A DNA stretch of 64,000 nucleotides from Sphingobacteriaceae bacterium (GTDB lineage: Bacteria; Bacteroidota; Bacteroidia; Sphingobacteriales; Sphingobacteriaceae). The notes under the pieces were generated by a model that saw nothing but the letters and a program-made list of their open reading frames with translations, did not search any database and was not told the origin of the DNA. Within the stretch, counting starts at the first letter, position 1; every line of letters starts with the position of its first letter. Positions 17,597-38,959 of this stretch are shown here, piece by piece. The stretch lies in assembly GCA_947460875.1 (NCBI GenBank), contig CANHGR010000001.1, positions 1-64,000 on the forward strand, read 5' to 3'. Made by a program: the position numbers and the translations under genes.

Positions 17597-20500
17597 GTGA
17601 AAAAAGGGCTAGTCGTTTTTTTAATTAAAGCTGTCTGCTATTTTGTATTTATACCTTGGCATGTACGTGCACAAAATCAGGCTTCTAGTATTTCAGACAC
17701 TACGAGGCTTATCTATCCAATAAGAGATTCCCGCGTAATAGACCTCAAGCCCAAAGTGGGTGTTTATTTGCAAAGTCCTTCGAATATTAGAAGATCAGTT
17801 GAATATGATCCGATCACGAAGCAATTTGTAATTTCTGAAAAGATCGGAACGGAATTGTACAGGCCCTCTCAATATTTCAATATCACAGACTACCAAAAAT
17901 ACGAGGCCCAGAAAGCTAAAAGAGCATACTGGCAGCAGCTTGCTGACAATCAATTGTCTAATGCAAAAAAGCCAGGGTTTATTCCGCAGATTGTGATAGA
18001 CAGCCGGTCATTTGAGCGTATTTTCGGAAGTTCTATTATTGATATTCGTCCCCAGGGTTCTGCAGAGTTGACCCTTGCAGGTCGTTTGAATCGAAATGAG
18101 AATCCACTATTTAATGAGCGCCAGAGAAGACAAGGGAATTTTGATTTTAACCAAAGGATCCAAATGAACGTGGTGGGTCAGGTGGGAGACAAGTTACGCA
18201 TCTCTACAAACTACAATACAGAAGCTCAGTTTGATTTCGAAAATCAAGTAAAACTCGATTATACAGGTCGGCCTGATGAGATCATCCAGAAAATCGAAGC
18301 AGGAAATGTGAGTCTTCCTCTAAGCTCTTCACTAATTACTGGTAGCCAAGCACTTTTCGGATTAAAAACACAACTACAGTTCGGGCGACTGAATGTTACC
18401 AGCATCTTCACGCAGCAAAAATCGCAGCAGCGAGAGATGACGATTACCAATGGTTCGCAGCAAAATGAGATTCCCAGAATAACGATTGATAATTACGAAG
18501 CCAACAGACATTATTTTCTCGCCCAATATTTTAGGGATAATTACAATAGATCATTATCAACTATTCCTATTAATACCTCGGCCGTTAATATCACCAAAAT
18601 TGAAGTGTGGGTAACGAATCGAAACGCTAGTACAGTTGACTCGAGAGACGTGCTGGCATTTCTAGATTTAGGCGAAAATAAGCCGTACAATACAGCTCAG
18701 GTGCGAGGCGGTCCCGGTTTTTCGATTTTACCTGCCGGATTCAGTGGTACCGGGTTTGCACAGGCATCGAACAATCTATTACAAAACCTCCCTCCCGGCG
18801 CTCGGCTTACAAATACAAACGATGTTAACGCATATTTTCAAGCAAATAGTGGAACAGATAATTATGTCAAACTCACTTATGCCAGAAAACTTACAGAGCG
18901 TGAATTTACGCTAAGTGCCCGCTTGGGCTATATCTCTTTAAACACATCGCTAAATGCAGATGAGGTTCTCGCGGTAGCGTATCGATATACAATTAATGGA
19001 ATAGAATATCAAGTAGGTGAGTTTACAACCGACGTGCCAGTAGACCCGAATACTCCACAGGTTCTATATGTTAAGCTTTTAAAAAACGAGACCCTAAAAA
19101 CGAATCTTCCAACTTGGGACTTGATGATGAAGAACATCTACTCTTTGGGGGCGTATCAGATCAGCCGATCAGATTTCAATCTTCAAATACTACGACTGGA
19201 CGATAATTCAGGTGTTGAGAAGCCCATCATCACGGAAGGTGCGAATACTAGCGGGAAGTTATGGCTGCAGCTCACCAATCTCGATAATCTGAACCAACAA
19301 AGCGACCGAAAACCAGATGGATATTTTGACTTTATAGACGGCATTACAATAGACCCTCTAAACGGACGATTGACGTTCCCGTTAGTAGAGCCTTTTGGCT
19401 CTGATCTTGCCAGTAAATTTAACCCGGTAACAGAGCAGGCGTTAATCCAAAAGTATGTGTATCAGCCGTTATATGACTCAACGCGAGTATCGGCTCAACA
19501 GTTATTCCCCGGACTAAATCGATATATTATCACTGGCTCTTATCAATCGCAGTCTAGTTCAGAATTTTCATTAAATGCAATCAATGTGCCGCAAGGCTCC
19601 GTACAAGTGTTTGTTGGTACGCTTCCTTTAACGGAAGGGCTAGATTTTACAGTAGATTATAATATTGGCAGAGGGCGCATTTTGAATCAAGCGTTACTCA
19701 ATTCGGGTCAGCCAGTTAGGATTAAAATGGAAAACAGCGAGTTATTTGGCTTGCAGCAGCGAGCTCTTTCTGGATCCAGATTCGACTATCATGTAAGTGA
19801 TAAGCTAAATTTAGGCGGCACGATCATGAATCTCTCAGAAAAGCCCCTCACCCGAAAAGTAAATATTGCAGAAGAAGCCATTTCAAATACTATATGGGGA
19901 GTGGATGCTCAGTACAACTCCTCATCCCGGTTTTTAACAAAGCTTGTGGATAAGCTTCCCTTTATCAGTACAAAGGAAAGCTCATCTGTAACCTTCGCCG
20001 GCGAATACGCCAATCTGATTCCCGGTCACCCGAGGGCTTTAAATATTGCGGGAAGTACAAATGGCGCCAGTTATCTCGACGATTTTGAGGGTAGCAAATC
20101 TGTAATTAATATTAATAGCGCCATTAGCTGGCAGATTGCCGGAACGCCCGCTATGTTTCCGGAGTCGCAGCAAAGCAATCTTTCGTATGGGTATAATCGA
20201 GCTCGCCTCGCTTTTCATAATCTTGATCCTATTTTTTTTAACAGGCTTAGTACGACGCTTACGCCAGCCAATATCAAGAATAATGCCAATGAAAGGTCGA
20301 ATCATTATGTCAGAGAAGTTCTGGAGCAAGAGGTTTTTCCGTTTAAACAGTCGTCAACCGGACAAATAAACACCATTCCAACTTTCGACTTGGCCTATTA
20401 TCCGATGGTTCGTGGACCGTATAATTTCACTCCGACAGGGTTTAATAGCAGCGGCAATTTGCTCAACCCTCGAAATCGTTGGGGGGGGATTTTTAGAAAA

Positions 20501-23500
20501 CTGGAAACCACTGACTTTGAAACGCTAAATATTGAATTCATTGAGCTATGGGTGCTTGATCCATTTTTGTATAAACCTAATTCTTTGGGAGGCGATCTGT
20601 ATTTTAACCTAGGTAGCATCTCTGAAGATATCTTGAAAGATGGACGAAAATCATTGGAAAATGGTCTACCTCCTGATGGCGACCCTACGCGCACCGATCC
20701 AACCATTTGGGGAAAGGTTCCAAAACTTCAACCCGTTGTACAGGTTTTTGACAATAACCCTTCGGCAAGAAAATTTCAGGATATCGGATTGGATGGTTTG
20801 ACTAACGATGAAGAACGCCAGACATTTACGGGCTTTCTCAATCAAGCGGCAGTACAATTAAATCCTCAGGCCGCGTCGGCACTAACAACAGATCCTGCAT
20901 CTGATGATTATGAATACTACCGTAGTAATTCGCATGATAGCAATAACGCCGGAATCTTAAAGCGCTACGAGCGCTACAACGGCACGGAAGGTAATTCTAA
21001 AACTCCGGAAGAATCCATTGCCCTAACGGGAATAGAGAACTCTGCATCAACTTCCCTCCCAGACGGTGAAGATATCAATCGTGATAACAATTCTTCACAA
21101 GCAGATGAATATTACCAATATAAAGTGTCAGTAAGGCCTCAGGATCTGGTCGTGGGCCAAAACTTCGTCACAGATAAGATTACTTCCTCTGTCAGGCTGG
21201 CTAATGGATCGGTGCAGCAGGCCACTTGGTATCAGTTTAAGATCCCTATTGCCCAGTTTCAGCAAAAGGTGGGTAACATACAGAATTTTAGATCGATTCG
21301 CTTTATAAGGATGTTTATGACCGATTTTGTGGATACAACGGTTTTAAGGTTTGCAAGAATGCAACTCGTGAGAGGAGAGTGGCGTCGTTTTAATGCAGAA
21401 AATACTCCTTCAAAAGTCTTGGCAGATCAGGCGCTGGGCACCAATCCGGGGCTCGACAATTCAGTTCTCGATGTAAGCGCCGTAAATATTGAAGACAATG
21501 GTACCCGAGTGCCCATCCCATACGTTGTTCCTCCGGGGATAGAGCGTGAACGCGATTTTAACAACTTCCGTGGAGATACCCGTCAGAATGAACAGTCACT
21601 TGCAGTAAATGTTCGTAATCTGCGCGATGGATATGCCCGTGCTACGTTCAGAACAACGTTCAATGATTTTCGATCCTACAAAAGGATTGAAATGTTTATT
21701 CATGCCGAGGGTGATCAAGTTAGAGATAACGATATTCATGGATTTTTGCGGATCGGAACTGATAATCAGTTTAATTATTATGAATATGATATTCCACTAA
21801 ATATTACCACGCCGGGTTCTCAAAATGCGTTTACCGTTTGGCCGGATGAGAATAGGATGAATATTGAACTTTCAAAATTTCAGGAAGCAAAAACAGCAAG
21901 AAATAACGCCACTTTAAATGGGCAGCCTTGGCCGGTAAATGTTCCGTTTAAGTTAAATGATGGAGCTAATGTGATCACGATAGTTGGTCAACCGGATATG
22001 AGTAAGGTCAGACTTTATATGTTGGGGGTGCGTAACCCGCTCAGAAATTCTGCTAATCCCGGTTCTGATGATGGCCTCGACAAAACTGCAGAAGTCTGGT
22101 TTAATGAGTTACGCCTAACAGATTTTGATGAGCAGGGTGGCTGGGCAGCTACCGCAAGGCTTAACGCTAAACTTGCCGATTTTGCTGATTTAACCGTTTC
22201 GGGGAGTAAGAGTACCATTGGATTCGGTTCAATAGATAAGCGTGTTAGTGAGAGAAATCGAAATGATACCAGACTGTTAGACGTATCGTCAAGCGTAGAA
22301 CTGGGTAAATTTTTGCCGGAAAGTTCAGGGATTAAAATTCCAGTATTCATCAATTACTCAACGCAGGTGAGCACACCACAATTCAATCCGGCATCGCCCG
22401 ATATCGAATTAAATCCTCTGCTAAAGAATTCCTCCAGAACAGCAAAAGACTCTATTCGTTTAACATCCGAAGATTACACAAACAGAAGGAGCATCAATTT
22501 CACTAATGTGCGGAAGCTCCGGACAGATCCTTCAGAAAAGCCTAAGCTTTGGGATATTGAAAATTGGAGTACTACCTATGCCTTTACAGAATATTATCGC
22601 CGAAGTTTTATCATCGAAGCAGCACTACAGAAGACCTATAAGGCAGCGTTAGAGTATAATTATACCACCCAGCCTAGCTATATCAGCCCTTTCGCAACGC
22701 TTATTAAATCAAACAAAGCAGCGTTAATTCGCGATATTAATTTTAATCTGATTCCCTCAATTATAAATTTCAGAGTCGATGCAGATCGGCTGTATTCTGA
22801 AAATACACCTCGAAACAATGAAGCAAATCGTTTCGTTCCAATTCAAACCAATTTCAATAAGAATTTCTTAATGTCGAGGTTATATAACTTAAGCTGGAAC
22901 TTGACACGCTCCTTGCAGATCGATTTTAATGCTACTAATTACTCGGCAATTGATGAACCTGAAGGAAGAATTACAGGCACCGTTCGTGATTCGATCTGGG
23001 AAAACCTAAGACGTCTGGGGCGCACAACGGATTATAGCCAGGTGATGAATGTCAATTATACGGTGCCCTTAAATAAAATTCCTGGTTTTGAATGGGTGAA
23101 TCTTGTTGCAAGATATGGAGGAAACTTTAAGTGGAACGCAGAACCCTTAATTACCCTTCGTGATCCAACGATTAATTATGGTAATAACATCCAAAACGCG
23201 CGGAGTATCCAATTAAATCCGACGATGAATTTTGCCGCTCTGTACAATAAGCTAAAGTTCATCCCGAGACCGAATGATACTACTGCAAATGGTCTAATTC
23301 GCGCGCTTAGCGGAGTGTTGACAAGCATTAAGAATATTAGTGGATCATATAATCGTACCGAAGGGATATTTCTGCCGGGATATCTTCCAACGACAACTAT
23401 TTTTGGATACGATTTGGATGAAAATGCACCGGGCTTTGATTTTATTTTTGGAAGCCAGCAAGACATTCGTGGAAGGGCGATCAACAATGGTTGGGTTACA

Positions 23501-24649
23501 AGAGATAGCTTACTCAATCAATTATATTTTACAACCTATCAGGAAGACCTAAATCTTCGAAGTTCGATAGAGCCGCTCCGGGATTTCAGAATTGAACTAA
23601 CGGCTTTAAGAAGTCGTAGTTTTAACTATTCATCGAATTTTAAATTTAGTCCGTTAAGCAACAATTTTGAAAGCTTTAGTCCGGTTACCACCGGCGATTA
23701 TAGCACCTCTTTTTTTGCAATGAAAACCGCTTTCAGAAAGCAGGAGAAGGATGGTACATCAGATTTGTTCAGAAAGTTCGAAGCCAATAGAGTAATCGTG
23801 TCCGCAAGACTGGGTCAACAAAATCCAAATTCTACCGGTGCTACAGCAGGCTTTTCTGATGGATACAATAAGAATTCGCAAGATGTCTTAATTGCCTCAT
23901 TTCTGGCAGCTTATACGGGCAAGAATGCTCAAAAAATTAGTCTGTCTGGTTTTCCGAAAATTCCTATTCCTAACTGGCGCATGACCTACAATGGCCTTAC
24001 AAAATATCGCTTTTTCAATGATTTGTTCGCTTCTTTCGACCTAAATCATTCATATAGATCCGTGTATAACGTCAATGGCTTTAGTTCACTAGTTCGTTAT
24101 CGGGAAATAAGCGGATTTCCGAGCGTCAGGGATGCAAATAATAATTTTCTGCCTACCTATCAATTTGCGCAAGTAACGCTGGAAGAGCGCTTTGTTCCCC
24201 TTATTGGGATAGACGTACGAACAAAAAATAATATGAATGTTAATTTTGAATATCGTAAATCAAGAATATTAGCATTAAGCCTATCAAACAGTCAGCTGGC
24301 ACAACAAAACGATAATATGTTAGTTTTCGGCTTTGGCTACAGAACTTCCCGCTTCCGGTTTCCTTTCGGTTTGTTTAAAGGGTTGAAGATGAACAATGAC
24401 CTGAACTTCAAAATGGATTTAGCAATTAGCGATAGGAAAACGGTGATCTATCGGGCAGATGTTACTGCAGCTGAGATATCTTCGGGCGTAAAAAATATTA
24501 CGCTTCGTCCTTCTGCAGATTACATATTAAATCAGCAATTCAGTATCAACGTGTTTTACGATGGAAATATTACCAGGCCCTATACATCACAAACATTTAA
24601 TACGTCGTTCAGCAACTTTGGTTTTACCTTGAAATTTGCATTACAATAA
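17597..24649 (+). CDS. sprA: SprA, type IX secretion system outer-membrane translocon
   Basis: A 2350-residue outer-membrane giant barrel that forms the translocon of the type IX secretion system and is needed for gliding in motile relatives. The length matches known SprA proteins. Seen: a signal peptide (cleavage near HVRA-QN), repeated beta-strand pairs throughout, the NQRIQMNVVGQVGDKLRISTNYN and YLDDFEGSKSVI motifs, and a C-terminal strand ending FGFTLKFALQ typical of barrel signals. The start is GTG 17597, preceded by GGGAG; no ATG is suitable. The ruvA-sprA-gcvH order is widely kept in Bacteroidota. The reading frame is unbroken. Confidence 0.96.
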   Translation: MKKGLVVFLIKAVCYFVFIPWHVRAQNQASSISDTTRLIYPIRDSRVIDLKPKVGVYLQSPSNIRRSVEYDPITKQFVISEKIGTELYRPSQYFNITDYQKYEAQKAKRAYWQQLADNQLSNAKKPGFIPQIVIDSRSFERIFGSSIIDIRPQGSAELTLAGRLNRNENPLFNERQRRQGNFDFNQRIQMNVVGQVGDKLRISTNYNTEAQFDFENQVKLDYTGRPDEIIQKIEAGNVSLPLSSSLITGSQALFGLKTQLQFGRLNVTSIFTQQKSQQREMTITNGSQQNEIPRITIDNYEANRHYFLAQYFRDNYNRSLSTIPINTSAVNITKIEVWVTNRNASTVDSRDVLAFLDLGENKPYNTAQVRGGPGFSILPAGFSGTGFAQASNNLLQNLPPGARLTNTNDVNAYFQANSGTDNYVKLTYARKLTEREFTLSARLGYISLNTSLNADEVLAVAYRYTINGIEYQVGEFTTDVPVDPNTPQVLYVKLLKNETLKTNLPTWDLMMKNIYSLGAYQISRSDFNLQILRLDDNSGVEKPIITEGANTSGKLWLQLTNLDNLNQQSDRKPDGYFDFIDGITIDPLNGRLTFPLVEPFGSDLASKFNPVTEQALIQKYVYQPLYDSTRVSAQQLFPGLNRYIITGSYQSQSSSEFSLNAINVPQGSVQVFVGTLPLTEGLDFTVDYNIGRGRILNQALLNSGQPVRIKMENSELFGLQQRALSGSRFDYHVSDKLNLGGTIMNLSEKPLTRKVNIAEEAISNTIWGVDAQYNSSSRFLTKLVDKLPFISTKESSSVTFAGEYANLIPGHPRALNIAGSTNGASYLDDFEGSKSVININSAISWQIAGTPAMFPESQQSNLSYGYNRARLAFHNLDPIFFNRLSTTLTPANIKNNANERSNHYVREVLEQEVFPFKQSSTGQINTIPTFDLAYYPMVRGPYNFTPTGFNSSGNLLNPRNRWGGIFRKLETTDFETLNIEFIELWVLDPFLYKPNSLGGDLYFNLGSISEDILKDGRKSLENGLPPDGDPTRTDPTIWGKVPKLQPVVQVFDNNPSARKFQDIGLDGLTNDEERQTFTGFLNQAAVQLNPQAASALTTDPASDDYEYYRSNSHDSNNAGILKRYERYNGTEGNSKTPEESIALTGIENSASTSLPDGEDINRDNNSSQADEYYQYKVSVRPQDLVVGQNFVTDKITSSVRLANGSVQQATWYQFKIPIAQFQQKVGNIQNFRSIRFIRMFMTDFVDTTVLRFARMQLVRGEWRRFNAENTPSKVLADQALGTNPGLDNSVLDVSAVNIEDNGTRVPIPYVVPPGIERERDFNNFRGDTRQNEQSLAVNVRNLRDGYARATFRTTFNDFRSYKRIEMFIHAEGDQVRDNDIHGFLRIGTDNQFNYYEYDIPLNITTPGSQNAFTVWPDENRMNIELSKFQEAKTARNNATLNGQPWPVNVPFKLNDGANVITIVGQPDMSKVRLYMLGVRNPLRNSANPGSDDGLDKTAEVWFNELRLTDFDEQGGWAATARLNAKLADFADLTVSGSKSTIGFGSIDKRVSERNRNDTRLLDVSSSVELGKFLPESSGIKIPVFINYSTQVSTPQFNPASPDIELNPLLKNSSRTAKDSIRLTSEDYTNRRSINFTNVRKLRTDPSEKPKLWDIENWSTTYAFTEYYRRSFIIEAALQKTYKAALEYNYTTQPSYISPFATLIKSNKAALIRDINFNLIPSIINFRVDADRLYSENTPRNNEANRFVPIQTNFNKNFLMSRLYNLSWNLTRSLQIDFNATNYSAIDEPEGRITGTVRDSIWENLRRLGRTTDYSQVMNVNYTVPLNKIPGFEWVNLVARYGGNFKWNAEPLITLRDPTINYGNNIQNARSIQLNPTMNFAALYNKLKFIPRPNDTTANGLIRALSGVLTSIKNISGSYNRTEGIFLPGYLPTTTIFGYDLDENAPGFDFIFGSQQDIRGRAINNGWVTRDSLLNQLYFTTYQEDLNLRSSIEPLRDFRIELTALRSRSFNYSSNFKFSPLSNNFESFSPVTTGDYSTSFFAMKTAFRKQEKDGTSDLFRKFEANRVIVSARLGQQNPNSTGATAGFSDGYNKNSQDVLIASFLAAYTGKNAQKISLSGFPKIPIPNWRMTYNGLTKYRFFNDLFASFDLNHSYRSVYNVNGFSSLVRYREISGFPSVRDANNNFLPTYQFAQVTLEERFVPLIGIDVRTKNNMNVNFEYRKSRILALSLSNSQLAQQNDNMLVFGFGYRTSRFRFPFGLFKGLKMNNDLNFKMDLAISDRKTVIYRADVTAAEISSGVKNITLRPSADYILNQQFSINVFYDGNITRPYTSQTFNTSFSNFGFTLKFALQ

Positions 24650-37009: not shown

Positions 37010-37357
37010 TTAATTGGTTGAGATAGCGACGGAGTCTTTTATCAATAATATTTTAATGTGATTGTCTGAAGGTATTCCGTTGGAATAATAGCCCCAAGCA
37101 ATTACCGTATCCAGCTTTTTGTTTTTTAAATGGAACCTAAAATTGCCATCTGATTTTTCGACATCGTCAAAGCATAAAATTTCCCTTTGAGTGTCATTGC
37201 TGTCAACAGCAAGGGTAATCCCGTTTACCACCAGCAACGATTTTTGTGTTCGATTCGTGAAAGAGATTTGAACCCTATTTTTGCACCTCTTATCATTTGG
37301 ACTTTTACAACTTTGCAGCACTGTCGACAACAGAAAAATGAATATAATAGTCTTCAT
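37010..37357 (-). CDS. Small lipoprotein, possible partner of the large upstream lipoprotein
   Basis: A 115-residue lipoprotein with signal peptide and lipobox LQSC (Cys17). The mature part has beta-strand character (VQISFTNRTQKSLLVVNGITL, ILLIKDSVAIS). No family is recognised. It begins three bases after the stop of the 532-residue lipoprotein gene on the same strand, so the two are almost certainly co-expressed. An accessory or immunity role for the larger protein is a guess from position only. Confidence 0.7.
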   Translation of the reverse strand: MKTIIFIFLLSTVLQSCKSPNDKRCKNRVQISFTNRTQKSLLVVNGITLAVDSNDTQREILCFDDVEKSDGNFRFHLKNKKLDTVIAWGYYSNGIPSDNHIKILLIKDSVAISTN

Positions 37358-37360
37358 ACC

Positions 37361-38959
37361 TTATAAATTAGTAGGAGTTAGGATTGTAATGTTAGGAATT
37401 ATCCCGTGATTGTAATTTGTAAAATCTAAGGGACTCAGGTATCTCAGCTGCCCCTCAATTAGCTTTTGGAATACTTCACTAGAGGATTCTGAATCGGACA
37501 AGCCAGTAAACAGTGGAAAAAGAGAATAGCCCACGGTGTGCCCAACAGCATTGTTAAATAGATCCATCTGCTTCTCTAGCGCAAACGCAAGGGGAGTTTC
37601 GGATTCGTGAGCATCAGAAAACCGTTTAGCGATGCTTTCGCCCGAAATATGATCATGTCCACAGTCTCTTTCATTCAATGAATTAAAAAACGCATGTCGA
37701 AAAGCATCGCTTTTGTCATTGAGGCCATTTACTCCAAACCTTCTTATCGTTTCTTTCTCTGCCTTTGATCTATTTTTATAGATTGAGTAGGCCTCTAATG
37801 GGAAAATTTTTACCAAAGTCTTTTCAGCAGCGGTTAAATTTTTATATACATCTGGTTCAAAGGAAAGGCTGAAGTTATTCCCATTCCCCAACCACTCTTC
37901 ATCACTCCACCAAGCATGCGCTTCCCCTCTGCCACTATTAATCAATCCAATACGGTAATTCTCTGCAAATGCATAATACGCCGGGTCAATAGCCATTTTT
38001 GAGATGCTTTTGGCAGCATACGTCTTTCTTTCTTCTAAACTTAGCTCAGACGAAAAGAGTACGTAATTAAAATAATGGTCGACCATGGTTTGGTTATGGT
38101 CTAGCCATTGAGCATCATCCGGAGTAATATACAGCATACTGTATAAATGTTGTGTATAAACACCCCAATTGTATTGATCAGAGCCGCCTCCGCCGCCCCC
38201 ACCTCCGCCACCGGGAACATAGTCTTCATCTTCGATTACGTAGTTTGCCCAAAAACTTTCTTCGCTACCATAATGATCATTCAAGGCCCCAAGATTAAAT
38301 CCTAAAGACCAAAATTGTTCGCAACTCGAATTATAATACCCGTAGTTCATAAAGCAGCTCAACGCTGCAAGCCTTAAATTTATCTTTTTTTCTTTTCCTT
38401 TTATCACCGTAGAAACCCTATCCCCGCCTAATTTCCCATCCGGATTTGTGAGATATGAATCAGCACGCTCATCAATTTTAAAGGTAAGAATTTGGCTAGC
38501 CATTCCGTTCTTGATTTTTTGGCCGCGCATTTCTAAATCTTGAAAATCAAACCAGATGAATTCAGCATTTAATCCTGATGCCTTTGACTTTTGCGGTTTC
38601 CAAGCTATAGCATAAGCACTTAGAACACCTGACTGCTTATCTTTGCTTAGAATCATGGCGGAAGTATTAGACACCGGTATCTTGACTACATGTTTCCCGT
38701 CAATTACAGCTTGTTTACTTTTACTCCATTGCAGATTAAAATTAATATCAAAGTCAAGGTTCTCAGCCCATTTCCCAATGTCTTTCGGACTGATCTCTTC
38801 CGATTCCGGTAAGTCGGCAATCCTGATTTTGGAATCCGGGTCGATCAGCTCCTGCTTGCGACAGGAATAAAATGTAAGCGAAGTAATTAATGTAAAAACG
38901 ATAAAATAAAGAAATTTGCTCAGGCCCTTGTTCGGTGATTCTAAAACGTTTTTTTTCAT
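37361..38959 (-). CDS. Large lipoprotein with poly-Gly linker and DAFRHA-type C-terminal domain
   Basis: A 532-residue lipoprotein: signal peptide with lipobox TFYSC (Cys33), a long N-terminal region of unrecognised type, a run of ten glycines near residue 250 acting as a linker, and a distinct C-terminal domain. That last domain carries DKSDAFRHAFFNSL, AKRFSDAHES and EKQMDLFNNAVGH. I recall this pattern from DUF6973-type domains at the C-termini of secreted multi-domain proteins in several phyla; their activity is unknown. The conserved His, Asp and Glu residues look catalytic. The small lipoprotein gene is coupled downstream. The family call is moderate. Confidence 0.7.
   Translation of the reverse strand: MKKNVLESPNKGLSKFLYFIVFTLITSLTFYSCRKQELIDPDSKIRIADLPESEEISPKDIGKWAENLDFDINFNLQWSKSKQAVIDGKHVVKIPVSNTSAMILSKDKQSGVLSAYAIAWKPQKSKASGLNAEFIWFDFQDLEMRGQKIKNGMASQILTFKIDERADSYLTNPDGKLGGDRVSTVIKGKEKKINLRLAALSCFMNYGYYNSSCEQFWSLGFNLGALNDHYGSEESFWANYVIEDEDYVPGGGGGGGGGGSDQYNWGVYTQHLYSMLYITPDDAQWLDHNQTMVDHYFNYVLFSSELSLEERKTYAAKSISKMAIDPAYYAFAENYRIGLINSGRGEAHAWWSDEEWLGNGNNFSLSFEPDVYKNLTAAEKTLVKIFPLEAYSIYKNRSKAEKETIRRFGVNGLNDKSDAFRHAFFNSLNERDCGHDHISGESIAKRFSDAHESETPLAFALEKQMDLFNNAVGHTVGYSLFPLFTGLSDSESSSEVFQKLIEGQLRYLSPLDFTNYNHGIIPNITILTPTNL

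What the first reader, a model, noticed from the sequence alone, without database searches (positions are those of the whole stretch)
37010..38959. Candidate secreted effector and coupled small lipoprotein
A lipoprotein with a ten-glycine linker ends in a separate domain with DAFRHA, SDAHE and MDLFNNAVG motifs, an enzyme-like set. A 115-residue lipoprotein starts three bases later. A large protein with a detachable C-terminal domain and a tiny co-translated neighbour is how many toxin-immunity pairs are arranged. No function is known for either protein.
Basis: partly seen in the sequence, partly recalled or inferred. Interest (0 to 1): 0.65.

Follow-up and report, generated by a model that had tools for sequence, protein, structure and literature searches.

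The report
Wnt-like lipoprotein toxin with immunity lipoprotein
This gene pair looks like a bacterial weapon and its antidote: a membrane-anchored protein whose tip has the same fold as animal Wnt and serum amyloid A, followed directly by a small lipoprotein that probably protects the producer.

Summary
A 532-aa lipoprotein (38959-37361, minus strand) has a ten-glycine linker and a separate C-terminal domain; a 115-aa lipoprotein starts 3 bp after its stop, in frame. The domain is Pfam DUF6973 (60.6 bits, cut-off 27). Its predicted structure matches a solved Bacteroides fragilis T6SS effector, BteO (Z 15.4), then animal Wnts (Z 8.6-12.6), then serum amyloid A (Z 6.2-6.8); unrelated folds score 4.9 or less. 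The invariant His/Glu/Asp and NNxxG fit the published Lipocone superfamily (SAA-Wnt clade), predicted to attack lipid head groups and used as toxin tips. A small lipoprotein or membrane-anchored gene follows all 26 DUF6973 tip genes read here (at least 11 partner sequence groups); background in this genome is about 1 in 118. The N-terminal carrier recurs in related genomes with other toxin tips (Tae4 amidase, metallopeptidase, papain-like), and the same tip sits on RHS proteins. This is a polymorphic toxin-immunity pair, a new member of a class described in 2025. Catalysis, substrate, delivery and immunity binding are inferred; co-folding of the pair was inconclusive.

The parts
37361..38959 (-). 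Toxin candidate, 532-aa lipoprotein
   Evidence: ORF; DUF6973
38861..38959 (-). Signal peptide and lipobox, residues 1-33 (Cys33), followed by RKQE: Lys at +3 as in the published surface-lipoprotein export signal
   Evidence: sequence; export signal PMC5080379
38537..38788 (-). N-terminal carrier domain, about residues 58-141, helix plus four strands, possibly cystatin-like (low-confidence model)
   Evidence: shared with proteins of up to 12 other genomes; model and weak Z 4.4 match
38183..38212 (-). Ten-glycine linker, residues 250-259
   Evidence: sequence
37457..37831 (-). Toxin tip: DUF6973 domain, Wnt/SAA (Lipocone) fold, residues 377-501
37694..37708 (-). DAFRH motif (418-422), predicted active-site His422 on helix H2
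   Evidence: invariant His; helix 416-433
37604..37618 (-). SDAHE motif (448-452), predicted active-site Glu452 on helix H3
   Evidence: invariant Glu; helix 443-452
37541..37567 (-). MDLFNNAVG motif (465-473), predicted active-site Asp466 on helix H4
   Evidence: invariant M, D, N, N, G; helix 457-479
37358..37360 (-). One-codon gap between the two genes (TAA GGT ATG); same TAA-NNN-ATG junction in L041, L042 and L043
37010..37357 (-). Candidate immunity protein, 115-aa lipoprotein
   Evidence: ORF; homologues in L036 and at the end of the L045 array

Best explanation
The pair is a polymorphic toxin with its cognate immunity protein. The large protein is exported and lipid-anchored, probably on the outer face of the outer membrane. 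Its N-terminal half is a carrier shared with other toxins. The glycine linker presents a C-terminal tip with the Wnt/serum-amyloid-A (Lipocone) fold. When the tip reaches a neighbouring cell it most likely acts in the envelope, using His422, Glu452 and Asp466 to cut or swap the head group of a lipid (a phospholipid, or a polyprenol-linked cell-wall precursor such as lipid II). The small lipoprotein, encoded directly behind it and probably co-translated, most likely sits in the producer's periplasm and blocks the toxin tip. Shown here: sequence family, fold, conserved residues, gene pairing, exchange of carriers and tips. Inferred: catalysis, substrate, surface exposure, route of delivery, neutralisation.
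For: DUF6973 match; profile and fold match to the solved T6SS effector BteO, then Wnts, then SAA; invariant His/Glu/Asp on three consecutive predicted helices, as in the Lipocone superfamily (PMC12419801); small lipoprotein or membrane-anchored gene behind 26 of 26 tip genes read against about 1 in 118 genes in this genome; at least 11 partner sequence groups; carrier shared with Tae4, metallopeptidase and other tips; the same tip on RHS proteins; Lys at +3 in 16 of 22 toxins and 2 of 21 partners.
Against: No toxicity, enzyme or binding data. Co-folding was uninformative (partner pLDDT about 30). Some DUF6973 proteins have no partner and look like household proteins (L005-L016, L018, L019, L034, L069, L070). 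The SAA-Wnt sNxxGR motif reads NNAVGH here, without the final Arg. The Wnt profile hits are individually not significant (E 0.1-1.9) and Foldseek alone found nothing.
Confidence: 0.78

Rival explanations
1. The pair is a housekeeping envelope system: a lipid-head-group-modifying lipoprotein with an accessory lipoprotein, acting on the cell's own membrane.
For: Some DUF6973 proteins stand alone beside accD or heme genes without a partner (L005-L015), and many Lipocone families act in lipid metabolism (PMC12419801).
Against: Patchy distribution (12 of 301 genomes of the family), exchange of carrier and tip, RHS fusions, diverse partners, cassette array and orphan partners all fit conflict, not housekeeping.
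Confidence: 0.1
2. The tip is an inactive, Wnt-like binding domain (adhesin or signal) and the partner is its membrane anchor or co-receptor.
For: Animal Wnts are inactive and bind receptors; no catalysis has been shown here.
Against: The predicted active-site residues lost in animal Wnts are invariant here, and the same carrier bears enzyme tips such as Tae4 amidase.
Confidence: 0.07
3. The protein is a type VI secretion effector like BteO, not a surface lipoprotein toxin.
For: The closest solved homologue is titled a T6SS effector.
Against: The window protein has a Sec-type lipoprotein signal; the VipB/TssC model finds no sheath in its genome. The Bacteroidota TssC model also finds nothing, but it rang in no control genome, so absence is not proven.
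Confidence: 0.05

Closest known systems
Lipocone polymorphic toxins of the SAA-Wnt clade (Min-Wnt / prok-SAA), Burroughs, Nicastro and Aravind 2025, PMC12419801
   Same: Fold, His/Glu/Asp positions on three helices, fifth helix, NNxxG; lipobox plus an N-terminal carrier shared with other lipid- or wall-attacking tips; membrane or lipoprotein immunity partner.
   Different: DUF6973 is not named in the main text; the final Arg of sNxxGR is His here; whether the window's partner has one of the immunity folds listed there (BamE-like and others) is unknown; Min-Wnt versus prok-SAA not resolved.
BteO, Bacteroides fragilis T6SS effector (PDB 9uu0)
   Same: Same domain: profile E 4.9e-14, fold Z 15.4 over 141 residues.
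   Different: Described as a T6SS effector; the window protein is a lipoprotein with its own carrier. No paper on BteO was found in the library.
TelC / TipC of Streptococcus intermedius (as summarised in PMC12419801)
   Same: Works like it: a Lipocone superfamily toxin acting outside the cytoplasm, countered by an extracytoplasmic immunity protein.
   Different: TelC is a separate clade, exported by T7SS; no direct comparison was made here.
SitA / SitI lipoprotein toxins of myxobacteria (PMC5562445)
   Same: Polymorphic toxins handed over by outer-membrane exchange; recalled as lipoproteins with cognate immunity.
   Different: Delivery needs the TraA receptor, which was not looked for here; only the abstract was seen.
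Cystatin-like lipobox carriers and variable tips (PMC12419801)
   Same: The N-terminal domain recurs in front of Tae4 and peptidase tips.
   Different: The carrier fold is predicted only at low confidence here.

Membership tests
Pfam DUF6973 (PF22322) | Profile match above the curated cut-off | tested here: met
   60.6 bits against 27
Lipocone superfamily | Helical core with His (H2), Glu (H3), Asp (H4) in one pocket | tested here: met
   H422, E452, D466 invariant and on consecutive helices; fold Z 15.4-8.6 to BteO and Wnts. Pocket geometry was not inspected (no coordinates).
Lipocone superfamily, SAA-Wnt clade | Fifth helix after H4 | tested here: met
   Helix 489-501 in the model
Lipocone superfamily, SAA-Wnt clade | sNxxGR motif around the H4 site | tested here: inconclusive
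   NNAVGH in the window; NNxxGR in many homologues
Lipocone superfamily, SAA-Wnt clade | Enzyme activity on lipid head groups | not testable with these tools
   Predicted for the clade in PMC12419801
Polymorphic toxin system | Conserved N-terminal carrier with variable C-terminal toxin tips | tested here: met
   Carrier with Tae4, Tox-MPTase3-like, C39-like and other tips; DUF6973 on RHS carriers
Polymorphic toxin system | Immunity gene directly downstream of the tip | tested here: met
   Position: 26 of 26 tip genes read, background about 1 in 118. Protective function not tested.
T6SS effector | T6SS in the genome, effector without Sec signal | tested here: inconclusive
   Lipoprotein signal present; no VipB/TssC match, Bacteroidota TssC model without positive control
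T9SS cargo | C-terminal T9SS sorting domain | tested here: inconclusive
   No sorting-domain model matched at E<=1 in NCBIfam; SprA is present in the genome

The most novel reading that the evidence does not exclude
A T6SS-independent, surface-displayed lipoprotein weapon with a Wnt-fold lipid-head-group enzyme as its tip, neutralised by small periplasmic lipoproteins of a fold not among the immunity proteins described so far.
Probability: 0.3. Interest if true: 0.65.

Novelty: new member of a known kind. Interest (0 to 1): 0.48.

Why it matters
It ties a domain of unknown function (DUF6973), found in bacterial toxins and in a solved T6SS effector, to the fold of Wnt and serum amyloid A. It also supplies many concrete toxin-immunity pairs in environmental bacteria on which the lipid-head-group activity predicted for this clade can be assayed; according to PMC12419801 only TelC has been characterised among Lipocone toxins.

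Tried and rejected
Co-folding: tip and small lipoprotein were folded as one read-through chain, since both lie in one frame in the window, L041, L042 and L043. The tip was confident, the small lipoprotein was not (pLDDT about 30), so no conclusion. Foldseek alone gave no match at E<=0.001; the Wnt/SAA matches come from VIA-align re-ranking of Foldseek's candidates. Single-sequence PDB searches found nothing useful. Tox-DHNNK nuclease (PMC3482391) was considered because of the HNN motif; it is an HNH/EndoVII nuclease and the model is Wnt-like. Anti-phage models: no match. Small-lipoprotein family models: none above cut-off; NigD and BSAP-5i hits are far below it. GC content of toxin and carrier does not differ clearly from neighbours; the small gene is somewhat lower, 0.36 against 0.40, too weak a sign of transfer. 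Single-sequence search of viral contigs found nothing; the alignment search did. Several paper searches for BteO, DUF6973 and Bte effectors gave no description of this domain.

Full report
Observation. The two genes are as described. On the minus strand, 38959-37361 encodes a 532-aa protein with a signal peptide and lipobox (Cys33), ten glycines (250-259), and a C-terminal half with DAFRH (418-422), SDAHE (448-452) and MDLFNNAVG (465-473). A 115-aa lipoprotein follows at 37357-37010, separated by one codon (TAA GGT ATG). The nearest relatives L041, L042 and L043 keep the same TAA-NNN-ATG junction.

Identity of the tip. Pfam calls it DUF6973, 60.6 bits against a cut-off of 27. The genome holds one copy. 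An alignment of 21 domains has eight invariant positions, A, H, E, M, D, N, N, G; a second set with viral-contig homologues keeps the H, E, M, D, N, N, G. Profiles from these sets find a solved B. fragilis T6SS effector (9uu0, E 2.7e-13 and 4.9e-14); the next hits are nearly all animal Wnt proteins, at E 0.1-1.9. Those Wnt hits are not significant by themselves, but they align motif on motif (DARE...MNLHNNEAGR). Pfam's wnt model also hits 5 of the 21 members, best E 0.0017 before correction for 21 scans.

Fold. AlphaFold2 models of the full-length protein and of tip plus partner are confident for the tip (pLDDT mostly 85-96) but not for the N-terminal half or the partner. VIA-align against the PDB ranks BteO (9uu0) first (Z 15.4, 141 residues, 3.0 A), then Wnt3, 7a, 3a and 8 (Z 12.6-8.6), then mouse SAA3 and human SAA1 (Z 6.8-6.2); the next, unrelated row is at 4.9. 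The full-length model gives Wnt Z 12.3-8.4 and SAA 6.2-6.0 over 4.6. Helical bundles can reach Z 13 without kinship, so the weight lies in the coherent ranking (BteO, then only Wnts, then only SAAs) together with the shared motifs.

Match to the Lipocone superfamily. Burroughs, Nicastro and Aravind (PMC12419801) unite Wnt, SAA, TelC, VanZ and others. They describe an ancestral His (H2), Glu (H3) and Asp (H4), a fifth helix and an sNxxGR motif for the SAA-Wnt clade, lipobox toxins with a cystatin-like carrier, and immunity proteins that are all membrane proteins or lipoproteins. In the window H422, E452 and D466 lie on three consecutive predicted helices (416-433, 443-452, 457-479), NNAVG follows D466, and a fifth helix is present (489-501). 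The final Arg is His here. Their main text does not name DUF6973, and the library holds no paper that does. Min-Wnt versus prok-SAA was not resolved.

Neighbour conservation. For every locus in hand where DUF6973 is the C-terminal tip of a longer Bacteroidota-type protein, or a detached cassette of one, the next gene was read. A small lipoprotein or membrane-anchored gene starts between -28 and +37 bp from the stop in 26 of 26: window, L002, L017, L021, L022, L024, L026-L032, L041-L043, L045 (twice), L050, L068, L071-L076. This class was defined after looking, close relatives in it are not independent, and matches without a fetched locus were not read. Outside the class, standalone proteins (L005-L016, L018, L019, L034), L020 and the mid-protein domains of L069 and L070 have no such partner. 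In about 284 kb of the window's genome, 2 of 119 genes of at least 250 aa are followed within 60 bp by a small lipoprotein, and one of them is this pair. The partners fall into at least 11 groups at phmmer E<0.01. The window's partner is related to an orphan in L036 (40% identity) and to a gene, broken by a frameshift, at the end of a DUF6973 array in L045. Diverse partners behind one tip family, cassette arrays and orphan partners are the usual pattern of toxin-immunity loci (PMC3482391 and general knowledge).

Carrier. The N-terminal 240 residues match proteins in up to 12 other genomes of the family (the weakest, L100, looks like chance). In those read, other tips follow: Tae4 amidase (E 5.1e-18), Tox-MPTase3-like (E 3e-4, below cut-off) and zincin-like peptidases, a C39-like papain fold (weak) and nuclease-like tips (weak), most with a small gene downstream. 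The model suggests a helix plus four strands with a weak match to a designed cystatin fold (Z 4.4), in line with the carrier in PMC12419801, but at low confidence.

Location and delivery. The export signal of surface lipoproteins is C-X-K-(D/E)2 in Capnocytophaga (PMC5080379). Lys is at +3 in 16 of 22 toxins, the window's included (CRKQE), and in 2 of 21 partners (Fisher p 3e-5, relatedness ignored). This suggests toxin outside and partner inside; it is inference, and the signal has not been mapped in this family. No T6SS sheath was found (the second without a positive control). SprA of the T9SS lies in the same window, but no T9SS sorting domain was detected in the toxin.

Verdict. A polymorphic toxin-immunity pair with a Wnt/SAA-fold tip: about 0.8 for toxin-immunity, about 0.5 for lipid-head-group hydrolysis as the activity. 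It is a new member of a class described in 2025, and well suited to bench tests.

Noticed in passing
L007, L010-L015; L005, L006, L009: Standalone 163-172-aa DUF6973 proteins without partner follow a gene resembling accD (acetyl-CoA carboxylase beta) in one set of genomes, and lie beside heme-pathway-like genes in another: possible household, lipid-related members of the Wnt/SAA clade.
   Followed up: partly
L045:3891-7083: Allomuricauda locus with a full DUF6973 lipoprotein, a small lipoprotein, a detached second DUF6973 cassette, a second small lipoprotein and a third, frameshifted small lipoprotein related to the window's partner.
   Followed up: partly
L069, L070: DUF6973 lies in the middle of a 360-aa lipoprotein, followed by a conserved C-terminal region, with no small partner gene.
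   Followed up: no
L047-L068 (IMG/VR contigs): DUF6973 domains on viral contigs, some in Gram-positive-type secreted proteins and some in longer proteins of unknown role.
   Followed up: no
window 17597-24649: A 2350-aa protein carries the SprA N-terminal domain of the type IX secretion system.
   Followed up: no
L092: Metallopeptidase-tipped relative with the same carrier, followed by three related small proteins in a row, like an immunity array.
   Followed up: no
L040:4278-5453: Enterococcus plasmid: secreted DUF6973 protein with a small membrane-anchored gene directly upstream, like the simple two-gene Gram-positive version.
   Followed up: no
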